Source: Reticulascus tulasneorum
Taxonomy: Eukaryota > Ascomycota > Sordariomycetes > Glomerellales > Reticulascaceae
DNA length: 64,000 nt
NCBI GenBank assembly: GCA_001557505.1
Contig: LSAX01000001.1
Location: 496,001-560,000 of the forward strand
Direction: 5' to 3'
The first letter of the stretch is position 1. Each line of letters begins with the position of its first letter. Below the pieces are notes generated by a model. That model was not told the DNA's origin, searched no databases, and saw only the letters and a program-made list of their open reading frames with translations. A program made the position numbers and the translations under genes. Below, piece after piece: positions 25,621 through 57,904 of this stretch.

Positions 25621-28600
25621 ATGATGCGAACGTTGTGGTTTCGATACATGGTTGCGGCCCTGCTGTTTACGACGTGCCCTGTAGTTTGCCTTGAAAGCGG
25701 CTCGGATCCTGAAAATGCAGCGTCGGTAATAGCGGGAGACCAGGTTCCTGCTACACAAGCTGAGAAGGAGCTTGCTGCTCGAATTGCTCCAGCTCCCCCG
25801 GGGAAAACCATCGACAGAGCTGTCTTTGCGCATTACATGGTAGGCTGAACTTTCTTCCCTTCCTAGCCGGCCATGATTCCGTTTCAAGAGTCTGTTAACT
25901 TGTTTAAAAGGTTGGCAACCTTGATGCGGTTCATGCACATCAAGACATAGACAGTGCAGCTGCAATTGGCCTCAAGGGATTTGCTCTGAACATCGGAGAT
26001 CCCTCGCAGCCGTTCGTTCGGCAGACACTTGATGCCATGTTTGATTACACCCGTGACAATCATCCCACTGTTAAACATTTCATTAGCATGGATACTTGGG
26101 CGACGAAGGTCGGCGGCAACAGTTTGATCGCTTTCAAGGAGATTCTGCAGATTTACAAGGGCCATGATGCTTATTACAAAGGGCCCAACGGCCACAGCTT
26201 CGTCAGTACATTCAGTGATGGTGGGTTCACGCATGACGAGTGGAACGGCTTTTGGGACAAGGAGTTTGCAGGAGAGGTGTATTTTCTGCCCAATTTTGAG
26301 GGCACGGCAGGCTACTGGACTGGGCATCCAGGATGGCAAGTAACCTTTCGCTGCGGAGAAGGATGCTTGCTTCACTAACAGTGGTTAAGGTACGACTATT
26401 GGAACAGCTCTTTGCATGGTCTCTTCAGCTGGGATTCCTGTTGGCCAGGTCGGTATAACACCGATGCGGGAAGTGTCGCTAGGGATCAAGTTGTAATCAA
26501 TGAAGCGTATAAGAACCACAAGAGTTATATGGTTGGTAAGTCTGGTCTCTCTGCTGTCGCTATTTCTGCCACTGCTCCAGAAGAACCAAATAATGACTTA
26601 ACAAATAGGAATGAGCCCTTTGCAGTACAAAAACTCGGTAAGTCATGATGAAGTGCGCGCCTGACGGTTCCGGGACAACTCTAACCTTCTGCTCAGTACG
26701 ACACAAACTACTATCGAGAGGGCGAGCTCAATCTTCCTCAGCGGATGAAGAACATTTTGGAGATGAACCCAAAACCCAATCTCACTCAGATCATTTCTTG
26801 GGTCAGTATACTCAGGCGTGGCCTTTTTTTCGTCTTTTCTCCCCCCTTCCGCTCTGACATCCTTCATTTCTAGAACGACGGACCCGAGAGCCACTACATT
26901 GGCTATTTATGGCTTGAACAAAACAATGACACGCAGCCGTACCTCTACGCAAACCAGATTGACTGGTCTCATCTTGGATGGCAGCCGTTGATTACATCGT
27001 TTATCGATGCGTTTAAGCTCGGGAATCCTGCTTCGGGCATGCTGCCGGAATCTGGCAAGGAAGCCGTAGGAGCGTTATGGTACAAGACCATCTTGTCGAG
27101 TTCGGTCTGCCCAGCTTCTACTTCCAACCTGTACTCAAATCCAGGGGTACCAAAGTATCAGGATAAACCTGATGGCATGGTTTCAGCTTTCGATAGGCTT
27201 AACTGGGCTGTCGTTTTGCCGAATGATGGCATGATAATCCGGGTTGTTTCTGGCGGGAGGGAGATTGATCGAGTTGCTGGCAAGAAAGGCCTGAATTTTG
27301 GTGCATCATCTGGTATCCGTAAGTTGGCGCACCAGGCCCCTTCCTCGTTTTCTAACAAGCCGCACAATGAGTTTTCCGAGACTGCATCTCAACCTCGTAA
27401 ATTGGCATTTACAGAGAAAACCGCTAACTCGGCTACACAGAGGCTGGTGCCCAACGACTGGAGCTTTGGGACGCCGGATTCTCGCAGATCAAGTTTACTG
27501 CGGCGGGCGGTAGATGCATATCAGCTGGATGTCCCGATTGCATTTACAACATGAATTATCAGGTTGTCGAGCTTACTCCCGGAGCCAATTCAAACCAAGG
27601 CAAGTGCCCGTACCGCGTGTGCCAGAAAAAAGTCTTTGCCCACTATATGGTTGGGACTGTCGAACCTGCACACGCCCAAAAAGACATCGCCGATGCTGCA
27701 AACATGGGATTTGATGGATTTGCGTTAAATGTCGCCGACCCGTCCGAACCTTTTGTTTTGAACACCTTCAATGCCATGTTCGACTACGCGCGAGATAACT
27801 TTCCCAACTTCAAGCTATATATCAGCATGGATTTATGGGCTCTCGGAAACGCGCTTGGAGGTCGTCCTGTCTTGAGCGAATACGACACCATACTCACCAA
27901 CTTCAAAGGACACCCAGCATGGTTCAAAGGGCCTAATGGGGCGTCATTCATCAGTACGTACAGTTCCGGAGGTCTTGAAGACTTCGAATGGGCGGCTTTC
28001 AGAAACCGCTGGGGGGGCGAGTTATACTTTGTCCCAGACTTCGATGACACTCGTGGTTATAATACGAGCGACCCTGGCTGGTGGGCTTACTGGGGTGACC
28101 TTGTTGACGGAATAATGAGCTGGGAAACCGCATGGTCAAGCCCGGGAGTGGAAAACACCGGCACAGTTGGTGTTGACAAAGTGGTTCTTGCTGGCGCTGT
28201 CAACCATCTCAAGTCGTATATGATGCGTAAGTTCCTCATGTGGCGAGAATAAAGAAGCCCCTCGTACTGATTTATACCAGCGTTGAGTCCTCTCCAGTAC
28301 AAGAACTCGGTAGGTTATCGCCATACTCCCAGTTGTCTAGCCATCTCACTGACTCTCCTTTTCCAAAGTACGATACAAATTATTATCGGCAGTGCGATCT
28401 GGGCTGGATCAAAAGGATGGAAAACATTCTTAACATGAAAAACCAGCCTGATTACATCGAGTATCTTACCTGGGTATGTCAATGAATTGACGGGGTTGCT
28501 TCTTTCAGAACAACTAGCTGACAGTCTACATCAGAACGACGGCCCGGAGAGTCACTATATTGGAAACCTATGGTACGAACAAAACCACGACGCGCAGCCT

Positions 28601-30967
28601 GCACTCTATGCGAACGAATTCTATGATCATAAGGGCTGGCAACCTATCCTCACTTCGTTCATGGCTGCTTTCAAGGCAGGGCTCCCACCGTCTTCAATGG
28701 CTCCTCCATCTGGATCACCAGGTGTAGGCGCTATGTGGTATAAGACTATTTTGCAAAGCTCGACCTGCCCTTTCCCCGATGCCAATAAGTACACAGCTAA
28801 ACCGAGAGGCTTCGAAGCCGGGCGAGACCAGTTGAATTGGGCTATTATCTTACCACCAACCTCATCGGGCTGGATAGTCCGTGCTATCAGCAATGGCGTG
28901 GTTTCTGCACCTGTGCAACTCCATGCCGGTCTCAACTATGGGTCCTTCCCTGCCTCGGCTGGCCAGCAAAGATTGGAGGTCCTGTCGTCTTCTGGTTCCA
29001 TCCAGATGGCCGCTGCCGGTGGAAGATGTATTTCACCCGATTGCCCCGATTGCATTTATAACATGAATCCGCAGGTCGTCCCATTCTTGCAGGATACAAG
29101 CGCCCGGCAAGGACCCTGCCCCATTCAAAATTGTGCAGATCCCAATGGGCACTTAAGCGACGGCTCCGGAGACCAGCCGCCACAGGTCATCGTGGACCCG
29201 GCCATCTGGAACAGCCCTAATCCAATCGTTGAGTGCATCCCGCCTTGTTACCTTGTCCTGCCGCCTTATCAACTGGGGGCACCCTCCGTGATCACTTGGC
29301 CGAATTTCAGAACCTGGATCCTCTCCAAAGGAGCAGACGGGTCCACTCGTACAGTAGAAACTGTCATCAGCGTGCCGCCTTTCCAGCAGACTGAGATCCC
29401 TTTCTGGGCAGTTGTTGTCAAGTCGAATGACCCGACATATGCGGTCTTCACGCCTGTGCAAAGCGTGATGCCGCCAACTCAAATCATGACTCTTGGTCCA
29501 AACGAAGCTTTGATGACTCCAACACCATACCCGGGTTTCTCGAGGTCCCCCAATGCCACATCGACAATAATACACTGGGTTACTGTCACCCAGGTGGTCA
29601 TAATACAACCAATGCCCACCTTCTCAATCACAGCACCGCCGCCGGTTGTGCCAGTCGTTACTTATCGCCGCGGCAGTCACACGACCACCACCTCGACAGG
29701 TTCGCCATCTCGGCACACCGGCCATCACGACTGCGGCAATTTCGGCTGCCCTCCTGGGTGTGGACGCTATGCCTGCGATGGTGGTTGCGGATGGTTTTGG
29801 TGTGGCGGCGACTGTGGTCTTTTTGGTTGTGGTGCCGGCTTCGGTTGGGGTTGGGTTGGAGGTGGCGGGGGTGGAGGTGGTGGTGGAGGCGGTGGAGGCG
29901 GCGGTGGAGATCCTCCATCCAGTTGTCAATCTAGCACCACCGTCTCAGACTGCTCTGTCGACTGCTCCGTTTATGTCTACCCGCAATCGCGGTCGACTAC
30001 CTGCAGGGACCCAGAGTGCTCCAAGACAATCACCGCCTGTACGGCTACTGGAAGCACCTCAACCGACACGACCACGTTGCGGTATGCGAATACCCCTCCC
30101 CCCGATTCACCCTGATATAACTACTGTATACTAACTATGTGCCAACGCAGTTGTCCCACGCCGGTCCCCGACATCCCACGGAATCCAAATGACCAAGTAC
30201 CCATCATAGGCGACGGCGGACTTGGCGGCTGGCTCATTCACCCTGGAGGCTACACTTCAGCCCCCGAACCTCCCTCCACAACATTGCCGCCGTTGCCACC
30301 GTTGCCAGGGAAAACCACATCCACGAATACAAGACAGTGCTTATCGACGACTACATGGTCAAGCTGCATTGGCAGCGGCGGTCAAGTTGCCTGCCAGACT
30401 TTGTCCTCGTGCGCATCTTACGCGGAGCCAACATTGCCACCGTTATCAACGCGAACAACAACCTCGAATACAAGACAGTGCATATCGACGACTACGTGGT
30501 CAAGCTGCGCTGGTAGCGGCGGGCATGTTGCCTGCCAGACATTGTCCTCGTGCGCAGCTTACGCGGAACCAACACCGGACCCCCCGACACCTGACCCAAC
30601 ACCGGACCCCCCAACACCACGTAACTGCCTCGTCATTGTGGTGAGTAGCAACAGCATGTTTGAAACAGTGTGGTGGGTTGATATGTATCTTGACGGCGTG
30701 CGAGTGTGTCATAACTTTGTTCAATGCGATTGTAACGACGGTGCAATCCCGTGTCCCGACGGCTATACGCTGCGTTACGCGTATCTCCGCAAGAATAATG
30801 ATGAGTACACCAGGATTTGGGTCAATGGCCCGAACTTTGACAAGGAGGAAACCTGGGACCTCGAACAAACAGATGTTGAGAAAACGCAATGCGGTACCCT
30901 CAGTGTACCTTTACAGTGTTACCTAAAGACGTACGAGGGCCATTCCCAGCAATGCGATAGACCTTAG
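25621..30967 (+). CDS. Secreted alpha-1,3-glucanase with two tandem GH71 domains and a Cys/Gly-rich C-terminal region
   Basis: Eleven exons (25621-25839, 25911-26335, 26390-26535, 26608-26636, 26697-26801, 26874-27318, 27441-28226, 28281-28309, 28369-28473, 28535-30081, 30151-30967) sum to 1550 residues in one frame. A signal peptide (residues 1-23) precedes GH71 domain A, from FAHYMVG near residue 70 to about 490. Domain B follows, from a second FAHYMVG near 520 to about 940. Both carry AMFDY-RDN, an ISMD-WA motif, YKGPNG/FKGPNG, and the active-site region W-NDGPESHYIG (about residues 309 and 764). Each ends with the same CISxxCPDCIYNMN cap. Then come a Pro/Thr region, a CGxFGC-type Cys/Gly segment with poly-Gly (about 1205-1222), two repeated RQC-STTTWSSC units and a C-terminal module of about 110 residues. 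GH71 enzymes cut alpha-1,3-glucan of fungal walls outside the cell. ATG 25621/25624 was preferred because the longer ORF starts with GTG. Confidence 0.88.
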
Positions 30968-32443: not shown

Positions 32444-34655
32444 TCACAAACAACGAGAGACGAAGAATCGTACACAGTACCAAAAGATGGCGGCTTTATT
32501 CGGCCTTTCAGTGATCGGCTGCTCTGAATGATGATCCCGAGTATTGTCCCTACTCGACTCACAGGGCACTACCCCCTTATGAGAGCCTGAGCCCAACGGC
32601 GACTTGTGCTGTTTGATACATCTTGAATGAAGAGAATTTTCTGCATCGTCACATGAAAAAATAGCCACGCTCGGCCTTACTAGCACTCCTGGTTCAACTA
32701 TCCCATCACCGACGTCGTGAAAACTTAGGAACTCCGCGAATTCGTCCCAAGGGTCTGGTTGAACATCATGTAGTGATATGTCTGCAAGAGAAGACCCGGT
32801 TGTCGACTCAGGGGAACTGTGCTTGTGTACCTCAAACTTCTCTGACATCATTCCATACCCGTGAAGCTCGCTGTAGAGCTTGTTGTTCAGGGCCGGGGCT
32901 AGATCGTCCCCGGAGATGAGGCCGATGGACATCAAACCCCTATGCTTAGGTATTGTCTCCCAAACCAGCATGGGCATTCTTACTAGCCACATGATGGACG
33001 TGCTTTGCCAAGCTCCGACGACTTTGATCCGCAGGAAATCAGGTATATCTGATAGAGACTGCGCAATTGCTTTAAAGTCACTGTCGCAAGCAAACTTGAT
33101 CCGAACCAACACATCCATACCGCCCGTGGTCTCTTTCGTGGCAGGCTTCTGAACAGAATCTGGGCTTGGGCTATCAACCAGCGGCAACGGTGCTAGGCGG
33201 ACGTGTCTCGGAAGTTTTCCTGCGGGAAGCTGGGAAAGTGTGCGCATGACCGGATTTCTTCTCTTGGGCGTCTCAAAAATCGGACGGCTGCAAAAGTCCA
33301 AGTCATAGTCGCCATTCTCTTTTAGTTTCGGTCCAGATTTCTCGTCCTGAAGTTGATGGATAATTTCAGAATACAGTTCACTATCGAAAAATGGTCTTGT
33401 CCGCCAGGAGAACGCTGAAAGAACCTTAATTAGAGCGTTTGTGAAAGAATCTGGGCCAGGTTCGGCAGCGATGGCATCGGAGCCGAAACCCGTTGCCGTG
33501 ATTGCTACTATAACGCCGCTTCCTCCAGATTGCACAGTAGAAGGCCACGCGTGGCAACAATCCAGAAGTAGCAGAACATCCCCGTCCAGATCTTCCAACT
33601 CCGCAAGGAGAATGGACGGCGCCAGACTTACGCCAAGGGATCTTGAACTAGGAGTGACGTGTCAGACTAGGTATTGGGAAAGTGTGGAAAGCTTACGATG
33701 TCCATTCGCAAGGGCCCCAGAACTGCTGGTTTCCGTGTCCAGCGTAATACACGATGTGTAGTGTTTCATCGTCATCGGTTTGAACGAAATCCTGGATTCT
33801 TTTCTTGAATTTGCGCTTTCTATCCTTCTTGGTACAAGTTGTGGGGATCCGCCATCTCTGGACATTATACCTATAGGTATTACTCAAGACCTTGTGCAAC
33901 TGCGTTACCTCTCCTTCCACATTTAGGTCATCGTCTTCCCAGCTCAGCAAGAGGGCTTGCACTTTAGTGTATGGATGCTCCTCGCCATCCTGGCATCGTT
34001 CGACGGCCGTTTTGAGGTCGTTGACAAAGGCCTCGGCATTTGGGAAAGGAACACTGGCTCTGAGCTCCTGTAATGACTCTTCGACAAACTGCTCATGCGA
34101 GGAGAAATAGGCGATGTTGTCTCGCTCTGAATCTAACGTGATGAACGGCGCTGAAGTCAGGGGCAGAGTGCCCTTGATGTAAACGGACTCCAAAGGTTCA
34201 GCTCCTGGCCATGGGCTTTCCCTTGCGGCATCTGCTATCTCTTTCTCAAAGGAGATTAAGACACTGGTCTCGTCTTCCGTCGGGAGGAACACGCTTGGAG
34301 ATGGTGGACTTATGGTGCCCGAATAATATTCGGGTTCCAATTGCTCTATAATGTAGCTAGGAGCAGATTCTTGCACATTCTCGATGACGGTGGTGTCGGC
34401 AGTGTCGGCGAGCATTACACTACCGGGAAAACAAAGCGAGTCGCATTTGGCTACCTTTCGTCGTTGCTCATTTGGAGAAACGAGGCTGTCAGAGCCTGCT
34501 GGAGAATCGGGTACGACAACAGGTCGAACGGCCGACGTAGAGAATACTTCCGGACTCGCAAGCTTCTTTCTCTTCAATGTTCCTCGGCGGAGAAAAACAA
34601 GTTCATCTTGGACGAGTTTCTGATGTAGCAGCCCGTCGGTTTGCTGATTTTCCAT
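32444..34655 (-). CDS. Caspase-like (peptidase C14/metacaspase-type) protein
   Basis: Two exons (34655-33697 and 33647-32444) join in frame to 720 residues. Residues 1-200 look disordered. The caspase-like core follows, with beta-strand plus histidine motif IVYYAGHG (His307), then GPCEW and, 44 residues later, DVLLLLDCCHAW. There Cys351, ahead of His, aligns with the catalytic Cys of the metacaspase DxCHS motif and Cys350 is an extra neighbour. The intron falls between the two catalytic motifs. The last 300 residues contain a ferredoxin-like-looking segment (VRIKFACDSDFKAIAQSL) and a Ser-rich tail. This is the stand-alone layout of the caspase-like domains that fungi also fuse to NLR-type receptors. 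Its substrate is unknown, and no gasdermin-like or NLR gene is visible next to it. It may take part in regulated cell death or incompatibility, but that is inference. Confidence 0.78.
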
Positions 34656-36067
34656 TGCATGCAGTTATCAAGAGCCTCCACTGCAGCGTATACATATATT
34701 ACAACGGAATGGTAACATCGAGAGTCCAGTATGCCATTATCCGAAGATATAATACCCCAAGCAGCTGACTCTCTCATCCAGCAAGCGGACTGAGGTTCGC
34801 CAGAGTGCAACCCATCGCTTGCCTGACAATGCAGAAGGCCAGAATCACAACGTGGCCGCCTGCCAAACGCACGAACATCAACCACATTGGTTCCAGTTGC
34901 TCAAATCTCGGCAAGAGTTTCAAAAAAGTCGACCCTCCAGCACCGAGGGTCTCTACCGAGGGACCAAAGCAGTCTTACCGACGCCGACGTCTGCAGAGCC
35001 GACGAATCATTCTCAATGAACACTTGTCCTAGCAACGCGAGTGGCTCAAGCTCACAGGAAGGCAATGGCCGCCTCGTGCTAGTCATGCCGCAGATGGTCT
35101 TCCGATTAGCGGTGAACTGACGATACCTCCTCACTGTCAGGAAAGCCTGCACGAAGATGGATAACCCCGAAGCTGACTTAGGCAGCTTGGTAAAGATGGC
35201 AACACTCTGTAGATAGTAACAAGAGTAAATCTGGCAAACCCCAATGCCATGGACTCACACTTGTGTCCTGATGCAAGCATGGTCTAGAACTAACTGGACG
35301 CTGATTCTTGACATCCGTCGCCGTTGAGAGTGGGGGTGGAGGTTGGGCAGCAGCACCAAAGACAGAGCCTAACGAAATGGATCTTGGCATTGGCCACTCA
35401 GGATCTACGACATATGCCGGAATCCTAAAACTCACCACTTACACATCAGCTGGGCGTCCATTGCCGCATGTTCTTACTATTCGCAGTATGTCGAGCGGCT
35501 TGGTAGCACGAACTACTGGTGAAGCAACCAAATGTCGATTTGACTTAACACATCTGTCTCTCATTATGGCACTTGTCACAGCCGAGATCAAAGGTGCCTT
35601 ACCGTTCCGAGAGGAGCTGGTGAGATAGCTGGTAGATGCGCTCATTGGACATGGATGCGATGATCACATCTCACAGTAGCACGAGACAGACCCTTGGTTG
35701 CAATTTCTGCAATTCTGTCTAGTGTTTAACTGACGTCTGACTAGAGGATTCAACCCTCAAGTGCGCTGTGTCCGTGCCAAATCATGCCAATGCTGCAGCA
35801 AAACCCAAACCAAACCAAACCAACTCTCAAGGTATTAAGCGTTCTGCGTCATGAACTCGAACTCTGGTCTCAAGAGCCGAGGATCTCACCATCTGTCAGG
35901 CAATAATGTGATCCCGTCCACTAGATGTTGATCGAAACTGTTTGCCACATTCAAGCAGGTAGCGCTGCTTCCCAATTCTTCCCATTCTCTTGGGCCGAGA
36001 CAACTTAGTGAAGGACTTTGTGAGTGCAATGCTTCCAGGGGCATCTGAAACGACAGCCGGAGGTCTT
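34656..36067. other. Intergenic region; no supported gene
   Basis: Short ORFs on both strands without domains. It was searched for a small partner gene to the caspase-like protein and none was seen. Confidence 0.4.
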
Positions 36068-55520: not shown

Positions 55521-56037
55521 CCCTTAATTATTTACTCCCTAACTGGTGACATCTGGTCCGCCTGAAGATTCGGTGGGGGAAATGGTCATGGTAATCCTTT
55601 GTCACATATTGAGCCTCTTCTTAACCCTGCTGTCATTGTTCTTTGCTAAGTTCTCACCATGAAACGTGAGCAGGTTACCTTTATATGTAAGTTTTGAAGA
55701 CCTTTATCACTATGAATCAAGTGAGATGTAATGGCTTTGTAAACCTGAGATGCAGGTAATAACAACAAAGAGTATAGATCAAGACCATGTCTGATTTACG
55801 TCTGGCAAATAATACTGGCACAATAACAAGCACTTTCCAATGAGACAATTATGATATGGTCAAATAGCTAGCTTCGACCGACCAAGCCATGAAGTATCTG
55901 GCTGATTTTAGTGCTTTCGATATCAGTTTCAAGATATCATGAAACATCAAGAATGCTGTTCTGCCCTTCTGACATACGAGTAAACCGAGAACCAATTGAC
56001 AGTTTCTACAATATTCCGTGTTGGTTTACGAGCTTCA

Positions 56038-57904
56038 ATGGATCGCCACAGCCAGGATTCTCAAAGGGATTTCTGTTGCCCAGAGAAAATATTCGATGGC
56101 AATGTCTGTGGCAAATCTTTCAACCGCAAAGGAAACCTCACTCGCCATATCAAAACGCAACACCATACAGGAACACCAGCACGAGGTCATACCTTTGTCC
56201 ATCTCAATATCGACAGGGTTGTTACCGGAGCTTTCGAGGGAAGTGCAGATCCAATGGTAAACTATGTGCAAGGTTTTCAAACGTCATTTCGAACACTTCC
56301 CGAAACCATCAAGTCACCGGCACTTCCATCATCTCGTAAGTCAGGAAAGCGATTGAAATATGACTTGTATATTGTTTTTCTGATGCTTGATGTGGCCGAC
56401 TTAGATCACTTCTCAAGTCCTATTCCGACTGTTCAGACCAACACCTCTTGTGGCAAAGCTCTTGACAAAACACCGTCGAGGGAAGCCAGACCTGAAACGG
56501 GTGCATCACCGCACAGTAACACACCTGGATATCTCACACATGCAGATCGACCATGTCAAACGTCCAAAGCATCAGGAAATGTCCCCGAACTCGAAAGACT
56601 TTGCTCCAAACGGGCGAGAGCGATGCCATTATCACAATCCCGGATAACTCCTTTATCAGAAACCAGTGAGACCGCAGAGCAGTCACCAAGCGACATCGTT
56701 CTTACTACACCTCACATGACATCCCATAGTCAGGTAGTCATGATTGACGACGACTCTGGGAAGCGAAAATGGATGAGTCGAGACAGATTTGAGGAAGCAA
56801 TGCCGATGTACGAGGTCAAAAGATCTCGCAAGTTCTCTCAACAGCAACAAAAGGCAGTCGATTGGCTGACAAAGATAGCTAAGGACGCATTTAACAAAGT
56901 GGCAGGTGAGATTATGTACTCCTGGGGTGTCAAAATGACACACGCAGGCACTTGCATTATTGTCCCTGCCGCATGGGCATCCCTCCAACCGACAACACTG
57001 ATGGAGAAGCTCAGCTATGAGTCATGTGCTACATTGGATTGGGAACGTTTGCAGTTCAAACACTCGGATCATATTACAACATTTGGAAGAAGTGCTGCCT
57101 GGTTTGACGATAGGACTTGGCCCAGAACAGGCATCCAACTCGATAATTTCATGGAGTGCGGTCCTTTTGGGCGAATGGACGGCTCTCATTTGTGCCACAG
57201 TTCGCTTTGTGTGAACAAGAACCATCTCGTATACGAGTACTGTAGGACAAATCAGGATCGAGCCGGTTGTCTCGAGACGGCAAAGCGCTGGAGAAGCGAG
57301 GATCGTGATATCCCCCCAACTTGCACAATTCATGACCCCCCCTGTCTTTTACAGGTAAGCAAAACCAAGGCACAACTTCATCATTTCCAGGAACTTATTA
57401 TTGCAGCATGCCGTCCTCACCACGTATGAGCGTTGTTTGCTCCAGACATCTGTCCTCAGCAACGCTCTGAAACTACCGCGGCCTACGGCCCCCCTTAGGC
57501 CGCGACGCCATCCCTATAGCACTTTAGAGTACGAGTTGCCAATCCGCTTTAGCACCAAGGGGGGTGTGGAGGTTAAGTGCTTGCCCGAAGACTTGTGGAA
57601 TCCCTTGACATTTGAGACTGGGGTACAAAAGCCAGATCTGCTCTGTTCATTGTGCATTCGGATAAAGGCCTTTGGCACAGTGTGCGGGCTGTGGAGCCAT
57701 GTGGTTCATGACCACCGAGAGACTAAACCGGAGACAAAGCTGGACGAGATTCGTCGTGCGGCGGATCTGTGGAGGGAGTACTGGGACAAACTCAGGGCGC
57801 GAGGTTCTCTTCCGAAAGGAGACGCACTGACAGTTGAGAGGCTGAGACAGGCCAGCCGGGCAGACTTCTGCTGGCTGGATGTCTTGGAGTGGAATTTGCG
57901 ATGA
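56038..57904 (+). CDS. C2H2 zinc-finger plus His-Me-finger (homing-endonuclease-type zinc loop) protein
   Basis: Probable exons 56038-56335, 56405-57354 and 57407-57904 give 581 residues. The first intron (69 bp, GTAAGT donor, GACTTAG acceptor) keeps frame either way, so a 604-residue unspliced form is possible. Near the N-terminus is a C2H2-like finger, CGKSFNRKGNLTRHIKTQH. Its first Cys is displaced, with ten residues between the Cys pair instead of two to four. A Ser/Thr-rich middle follows. Near residues 380-420 is the segment SHLCHSSLCVNKNHLVYE, then N-x2-R-x2-C, the pattern of the zinc-binding His-Me-finger loop known from I-PpoI-type homing endonucleases. The last exon carries another Cys/His pair (CSLCIRI, HVVHDH). 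A DNA-binding or nuclease role is likely by family, but activity is unproven. It is divergent from the chromodomain gene. Confidence 0.72.

What the first reader, a model, noticed from the sequence alone, without database searches (positions are those of the whole stretch)
25621..30967. One secreted protein carries two complete GH71 domains with duplicated exon structure
Domain A and domain B each keep the same intron pattern: a 29-nt exon followed by a 105-nt exon (26608-26636 and 26697-26801; 28281-28309 and 28369-28473), then an exon starting AAC-GAC at the NDGPESHY motif. Both end in the same CPDCIYNMN cap. This is an intragenic duplication of a whole catalytic unit. As far as I know GH71 enzymes usually have one catalytic domain, so a two-headed alpha-1,3-glucanase may work processively or on cross-linked chains.
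Basis: partly seen in the sequence, partly recalled or inferred. Interest (0 to 1): 0.85.

Follow-up and report, generated by a model that had tools for sequence, protein, structure and literature searches.

The report
Two-headed fungal alpha-1,3-glucanase (tandem GH71)
This fungal gene appears to make one secreted enzyme with two complete copies of an alpha-1,3-glucan-cutting unit, a rare layout that a few other fungi also carry and that seems little studied; it does not look like a recent copy-and-paste inside the gene.

Summary
Window 25621-30967(+) reads as one 11-exon gene for a 1550-aa protein with two full GH71 units (51% identical, E 8e-156), both with an intact DGPE catalytic dyad, then a Cys/Pro/Thr-rich tail. 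One uninterrupted exon (27441-28226) runs from the end of unit A into unit B.

The interpretation needs correcting. (1) The layout is rare, not unique: 7 of 173 fetched GH71 relatives (fragments included) carry the same junction CPY..C..VFAHYM, and a 2017 table prints the label "GH71-GH71". My searches found no study of it. (2) The shared exon pattern does not prove internal duplication: three single-unit gene models lack exactly the 105-nt exon's 35 residues, so its borders are older than the tandem. Unit A has six introns, unit B three. (3) Third codon positions of A and B look saturated. Rear units of tandem proteins form one clade; the window's front unit pairs with one close relative's, not with its own rear unit or the other six front units. 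AU tests against A+B sisterhood are weak and disagree (p 0.036, 0.29, 0.047). (4) Processivity has no support; two-point attack on insoluble alpha-1,3-glucan is likelier, untested.

New variant of a known kind; moderate interest.

The parts
25621..30967 (+). whole gene model, 11 exons, 1550 aa plus stop
   Evidence: splice-consistent model made by hand; Pfam GH71 x2; own-genome matches
25621..25824 (+). N-terminal secretion signal candidate and pro-region (aa 1-68)
   Evidence: hydrophobic start read from the model by eye; no signal-peptide program was run
25825..27604 (+). GH71 unit A (front), exons 1-7, barrel plus beta-sandwich, aa 69-511
26877..26888 (+). catalytic dyad of unit A, D310 (26877-26879) and E313 (26886-26888) in NDGPESHY
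   Evidence: aligned to the WNDYGESHYIG segment of 9FNF, which holds the DxxE dyad (dyad); positions
26336..26389 (+). GC-AG intron in unit A
27319..27440 (+). intron 6 (122 nt), in the beta-sandwich of unit A; no counterpart in B; retention would shift the frame and end the protein within unit A
27441..28226 (+). exon 7: end of unit A sandwich, linker and start of unit B barrel in one open frame
27605..27634 (+). linker CPYRVCQKKV between the units; the CPY..C..VFAHYM junction is found in 7 other records
27635..29134 (+). GH71 unit B (rear), exons 7-10, aa 522-963
28538..28549 (+). catalytic dyad of unit B, D765 (28538-28540) and E768 (28547-28549)
29135..30967 (+). C-terminal tail (587 aa): IPPC..LPP module, Gly run, Cys-rich repeats, last 115 aa without another match in the own genome
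   Evidence: no Pfam match over cut-off

Best explanation
A single gene encodes one secreted fungal alpha-1,3-glucan hydrolase with two GH71 units in line and a Cys/Pro/Thr-rich tail. Each unit should cut alpha-1,3-glucosidic bonds by inversion, with Asp as base and Glu as acid. Two clefts on one chain, with about 25 residues between the end of A's sandwich and the start of B's barrel, probably give tighter residence and two-point attack on insoluble alpha-1,3-glucan of fungal walls (own remodelling or other fungi). The two units are old and diverged. They more likely came together from already separate GH71 lineages, or by a very old duplication, than by a recent internal copy. Shown: gene anatomy, homology, intact dyads, conserved junction, near-random third codon positions. 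Inferred: secretion, activity of both units, avidity, substrate, and the order of events.
For: Gene model and A/B alignment; Pfam x2. Both units match the solved AnGH71C and Agn1 by sequence and carry the DxxE dyad whose substitution cut activity 210- to 15,427-fold in AnGH71B and AnGH71C (PMC12394665). Junction CPY..C..VFAHYM in 7 of 173 fetched relatives, and every CPY..C match in that set runs into a second unit start. The rear units that could be read (window, P0037, P0001, P0002, P0003, with P0034 and in one set P0113) form one clade: 98/99, 100/99, 98/97 (fewer rows). Third codon positions 35% identical between A and B, NG86 dS not computable, dN 0.42. The two-unit relative P0001 was modelled with pTM 0.70; best solved match AnGH71C, TM 0.85-0.87 by target length for one unit. 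The genome also has two PF08323 matches, the domain of alpha-glucan synthases (recalled).
Against: No transcript, protein or activity evidence. P0002 (Chlorociboria) has NNGPE in its front unit and no dyad in its rear unit model, so two live sites are not universal unless that gene model is wrong. AnGH71B and AnGH71C were only minimally active on insoluble glucan (PMC12394665 abstract). In the P0001 model the stretch from the rear dyad on (753-784) has pLDDT under 50, so the rear active site is not well modelled. AU tests on origin disagree among row sets. In one search the rear group was not one clade while the fragment P0143 was in.
Confidence: 0.72

Rival explanations
1. Two adjacent GH71 genes wrongly joined in the model.
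For: Retention of intron 6 would end unit A early; no RNA data.
Against: Exon 7 is open across the junction; no signal-peptide-like start is seen before B; the same junction is found in 7 other records, and Pfam sees two GH71 stretches in one predicted protein in P0001, P0002 and P0003 (P0151 and P0037, whose models break off, gave one stretch each).
Confidence: 0.03
2. An internal duplication of one unit in this gene's ancestor made A and B.
For: A and B share three intron positions and phases and fall in the same large part of the tree. With 59 rows, window-lineage A+B as sisters is not rejected (p 0.29); with 55 rows, window-lineage A plus the rear units as one clade is not rejected (p 0.318).
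Against: Exon borders are shared with single-unit genes. Sisterhood is weakly rejected with 55 rows (p 0.036) and 53 longer rows (p 0.047). A is about as close to several single-unit proteins as to B. Near-random third codon positions exclude a recent event. The p values are not corrected for the 11 tests made, and the groups of window-lineage rows were named after the first tree.
Confidence: 0.3
3. Only one unit is a working catalyst and the other has become a substrate-holding module.
For: Chlorociboria P0002 shows altered dyads, and a few other relatives do too (for example NNGPESHY 2, NDGPGSHY 1, NDGPKSHY 1).
Against: Both window units keep NDGPESHYIG and other GH71 motifs.
Confidence: 0.2
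4. Processive two-headed enzyme.
For: Two clefts in one chain.
Against: The AnGH71C cleft is described as less deep than that of GH99, with -4 to +3 subsites; no tunnel is described in the sections read. Nothing here shows channelling.
Confidence: 0.07

Closest known systems
AnGH71C / MutA of Aspergillus nidulans (PDB 9FNF-9FNH, PMC12394665)
   Same: GH71 barrel plus C-terminal beta-sandwich, DxxE dyad
   Different: one unit (430-residue chain); matched at E 9e-23 (B) and 6e-13 (A)
Truncatella angustata hypothetical protein TruAng_012222 (P0001)
   Same: two GH71 units, same linker, rear unit in the same clade
   Different: front unit in another clade; 51% identity over 99% of the two-unit region; no long tail in the model
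JGI proteins P0037 and P0113 (each on a 5402-base contig)
   Same: closest relatives: P0037 A 77% and B 77%, P0113 B 84-85% identical; same linker in P0037; similar tail in P0113
   Different: incomplete gene models; that both come from one contig is inferred from the equal contig length
MalCi_670.57 of Malbranchea cinnamomea, labelled GH71-GH71 (PMC5683368 Table 2)
   Same: printed label of two GH71 domains; among the 40 most expressed putatively secreted CAZyme genes of that paper
   Different: label from dbCAN 5.0; the same table has GH55-GH55, so the label may be a split hit (that GH55 is one catalytic unit is recalled); sequence not seen
Single-unit long GH71 proteins such as Macrophomina P0008
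   Same: GH71 plus a CIPPC..LPP Cys-rich tail
   Different: one GH71 unit

Membership tests
GH71 (PF03659) | profile match over the curated cut-off | tested here: met
   498 bits against cut-off 34, two stretches
GH71 (PF03659) | DxxE catalytic dyad | tested here: met
   DGPE in both units, aligned with the AnGH71C WNDYGESHYIG segment
GH71 (PF03659) | C-terminal beta-sandwich packed on the barrel | tested here: inconclusive
   by sequence B aligns to AnGH71C through the sandwich (query 2-423); for A the PDB match stops at 292 but A aligns to B throughout. The window protein was not folded; the P0001 model has strands there in both units, packing not examined
GH71 (PF03659) | inverting alpha-1,3-glucanase activity | not testable with these tools
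   needs purified protein
Tandem GH71 group (named here) | two GH71 units joined by CPY..C..VFAHYM | tested here: met
   window plus 7 of 173 relatives
Tandem GH71 group (named here) | rear unit in one clade | tested here: met
   98/99, 100/99 and 98/97; not so, where the fragment P0143 was counted as a rear unit
Tandem GH71 group (named here) | front unit in one clade | tested here: inconclusive
   AU p 0.0165, 0.118, 0.032 in three row sets

The most novel reading that the evidence does not exclude
The tandem group keeps one constant rear unit while its front unit was exchanged: in the window's lineage (window and P0037) the front unit comes from a different GH71 lineage than in the other six tandem records, joined through the same CPY..C linker. 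Such a swap would mean that the front position is selected for a different specificity.
Probability: 0.3. Interest if true: 0.5.

Novelty: new variant of a known kind. Interest (0 to 1): 0.36.

Why it matters
GH71 is described as poorly understood (PMC12394665 abstract), and the two enzymes studied there were only minimally active on insoluble alpha-1,3-glucan. A natural two-unit GH71 protein offers a direct test of whether doubling the catalytic unit helps on solid substrate such as fungal walls. The linker signature lets the group be found in databases, where the precomputed Pfam column lists the family but not the doubling.

Tried and rejected
Two separate genes: rejected on exon 7 and the conserved junction. 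Recent duplication: rejected on third codon positions. Shared introns as proof of internal duplication: rejected, because the single-unit models P0045, P0100 and P0104 jump from LQYENS or LQYKNA straight to NDGPESHY, so the 35 residues of the 105-nt exon are missing between exactly the same borders, and P0042 and P0064 show an intron-like insert between W and ND. Paralogues in the same genome have introns near, not at, these sites: L018 near both, L019 near the first only, L020 near neither but probably one before YMM (placed by eye). Mosaic of unit A: per-segment identities gave no clear break. Neighbouring glucan cluster: no carbohydrate enzyme by Pfam among 20 of the 61 long frames of the window (one of the 20 is this gene's own tail). 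Literature: no hit for 'two GH71 domains' or GH71 with 'two catalytic domains' and fungi; 'GH71-GH71' in one paper. Searches (13 of 13 listed; 20 of 65; 10 of 42) were read as listings only, apart from the three papers read further (PMC12394665, PMC5683368, PMC11025385). Supplementary files could not be opened and most subscription papers are not held. Rows dropped: one search listed 120 of 149 hits; 135 domain rows (window's two included) came from 150 proteins, short matches left out; 80 of the 135, long branches and near copies, were left out of the 55-row tree. Organism: not determined.
Full report
Gene. The region 25621-30967(+) reads as 11 exons with ten AG acceptors, nine GT donors and one GC donor, giving 1550 aa. 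Pfam finds only GH71, in two stretches, with no other family listed at E up to 1. Unit A (aa 69-511) and unit B (aa 522-963) align over 452 columns at 51% identity, E 8e-156.

One gene or two. Exon 7 (27441-28226) is open from the last strand of A's sandwich (CPDCIYNMN) through the linker GKCPYRVCQKK into B's first strand VFAHYMVG. The same junction is found in P0001, P0002, P0003, P0037, P0122, P0140 and P0151: 7 of the 173 proteins fetched. Every CPY..C match in that set runs into FAHYM. The 173 include fragments that could not show the junction, so 7 of 173 is not a frequency. Of the first 150 proteins, 4 (P0001, P0002, P0003, P0037) hold regions matching both units. Pfam gives two stretches in P0001, P0002 and P0003 and one each in P0151 and P0037, whose models break off. 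Two records are named, Truncatella and Chlorociboria, of different fungal classes (recalled). Of the 30 proteins of 859-1488 aa found with the full-length query, 3 show matches to two units and 27 to one.

Catalysis. Both units keep NDGPESHYIG, aligned with the WNDYGESHYIG segment of AnGH71C. Its D265 and E268 are the dyad; substitution cut activity 6142- and 15,427-fold (PMC12394665). Of that paper I read the abstract, sections 6, 10 and 11, and passages. PMC11025385 (passages) names the DYGE motif as the candidate active site. An Agn1p D237N entry is among the fold matches. An AlphaFold2 model of the two-unit relative P0001 gave mean pLDDT 75.4 and pTM 0.70: high for the front unit, moderate for the rear, under 50 at 753-784 from the rear dyad on, about 67 in the linker. 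The alignment is thin over the rear unit. The Foldseek match covers one unit. No relative orientation can be claimed. The window protein itself was not folded.

Introns. A has six introns and B three, matching A's introns 3, 4 and 5 in position and phase. In the single-unit models P0045, P0100 and P0104 the 35 residues of the 105-nt exon are missing between exactly the same borders, as a skipped exon would look, and P0042 and P0064 carry an insert between W and ND, as an unspliced intron would look. P0003 and P0037 run out at SYMM-RK in their rear unit, as if reading through the donor of intron 3; P0003, P0151, P0122 and P0140 run on at FAHYMV of the rear unit, the place of A's intron 1. Paralogues in the own genome have introns near but not at these bases (by eye). 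All this is inferred from protein models. It indicates that introns 4 and 5 are older than the tandem and that the window's rear unit has lost intron 1. Hence the exon pattern does not by itself show an internal duplication.

Origin. Between A and B the third codon positions are 35% identical, against 62% and 72% at positions 1 and 2, and NG86 dS is not computable: the split is old and both units have been kept by selection on protein. In the careful trees the readable rear units form one clade, with P0034 inside (98/99; 100/99; 98/97). Front units of six other records form one clade (99/98; 99/96; four of them 96/95). The window's front unit groups with P0037's (100/100) and then, with modest support, near the rear units and a few single-unit proteins (84/94; 93/93); a 28-row set that holds these but none of the other six front units has 98/85. 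In one search the fragment P0143, counted as a rear unit, kept the rear group from being one clade; without it the clade returned. AU tests, in the order all front units together / window-lineage A with B / all units: 0.0165 / 0.036 / 0.035 with 55 rows; 0.118 / 0.29 / 0.08 with 59 rows including more fragments; 0.032 / 0.047 / 0.032 with 53 rows without the shortest fragments. In one search three other-record front units with the rear units were rejected (p 0.026), and the window-lineage front units with the rear units were not (p 0.318). These are 11 uncorrected tests, and the window-lineage groups were named after the first tree. The evidence leans against a lineage-internal duplication but does not settle it; long branches may mislead.

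Tail. 587 aa follow unit B. Its IW..PNP...CIPPC..LPP stretch weakly resembles the tail of a GH18 chitinase on contig 35 (33% over 63 aa, E 2e-4; GH18 and chitin-binding by Pfam) and tails of single-unit GH71 proteins such as P0008 (by eye). The last 115 aa match nothing else in the own genome. Its role is unknown; wall anchoring or spacing is a guess.

Context. The genome has at least three other GH71 genes and two PF08323 matches, the domain of alpha-glucan synthases (recalled), so its own wall alpha-glucan may be a substrate. Neighbouring frames scanned are unrelated.

Literature. The 2025 GH71 study reports that about half of GH71 members are multidomain and names CBM24, CBM96, GH18 and GT4 partners; a second GH71 is not mentioned in that section, and its one 'two GH71' passage speaks of two S. 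pombe enzymes. PMC5683368 lists MalCi_670.57 as GH71-GH71, by dbCAN 5.0, among its most expressed putatively secreted CAZymes (passages only). I found no experimental work on tandem GH71 in the searches; the library lacks most subscription papers.

Verdict. A two-unit GH71 protein in a small group that I found no characterisation of; ordinary chemistry per unit, unusual layout, uncertain origin. Processivity is not supported.

Noticed in passing
26336-26389: A GC-AG intron in unit A.
   Followed up: partly
29858-29908: A run of 17 glycines beside a Cys-rich stretch in the tail.
   Followed up: no
30326-30571: A Cys-rich segment (NTRQC..TTTWSSC..GSGG.VACQTLSSCA.YAEP) present twice in the tail.
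   Followed up: no
L024 (contig 35): A GH18 chitinase with a chitin-binding domain whose tail weakly resembles this protein's tail, suggesting a shared tail module of secreted wall enzymes.
   Followed up: partly
33696-34664: A minus-strand frame with a weak caspase-domain match just below the Pfam cut-off.
   Followed up: no
55984-57426: A frame with a homing-endonuclease zinc-binding loop match (39.9 bits) and a weak C2H2 finger match.
   Followed up: no
P0002 (database protein): Chlorociboria's two-unit protein has NNGPE in the front unit and no dyad in the rear unit model.
   Followed up: partly
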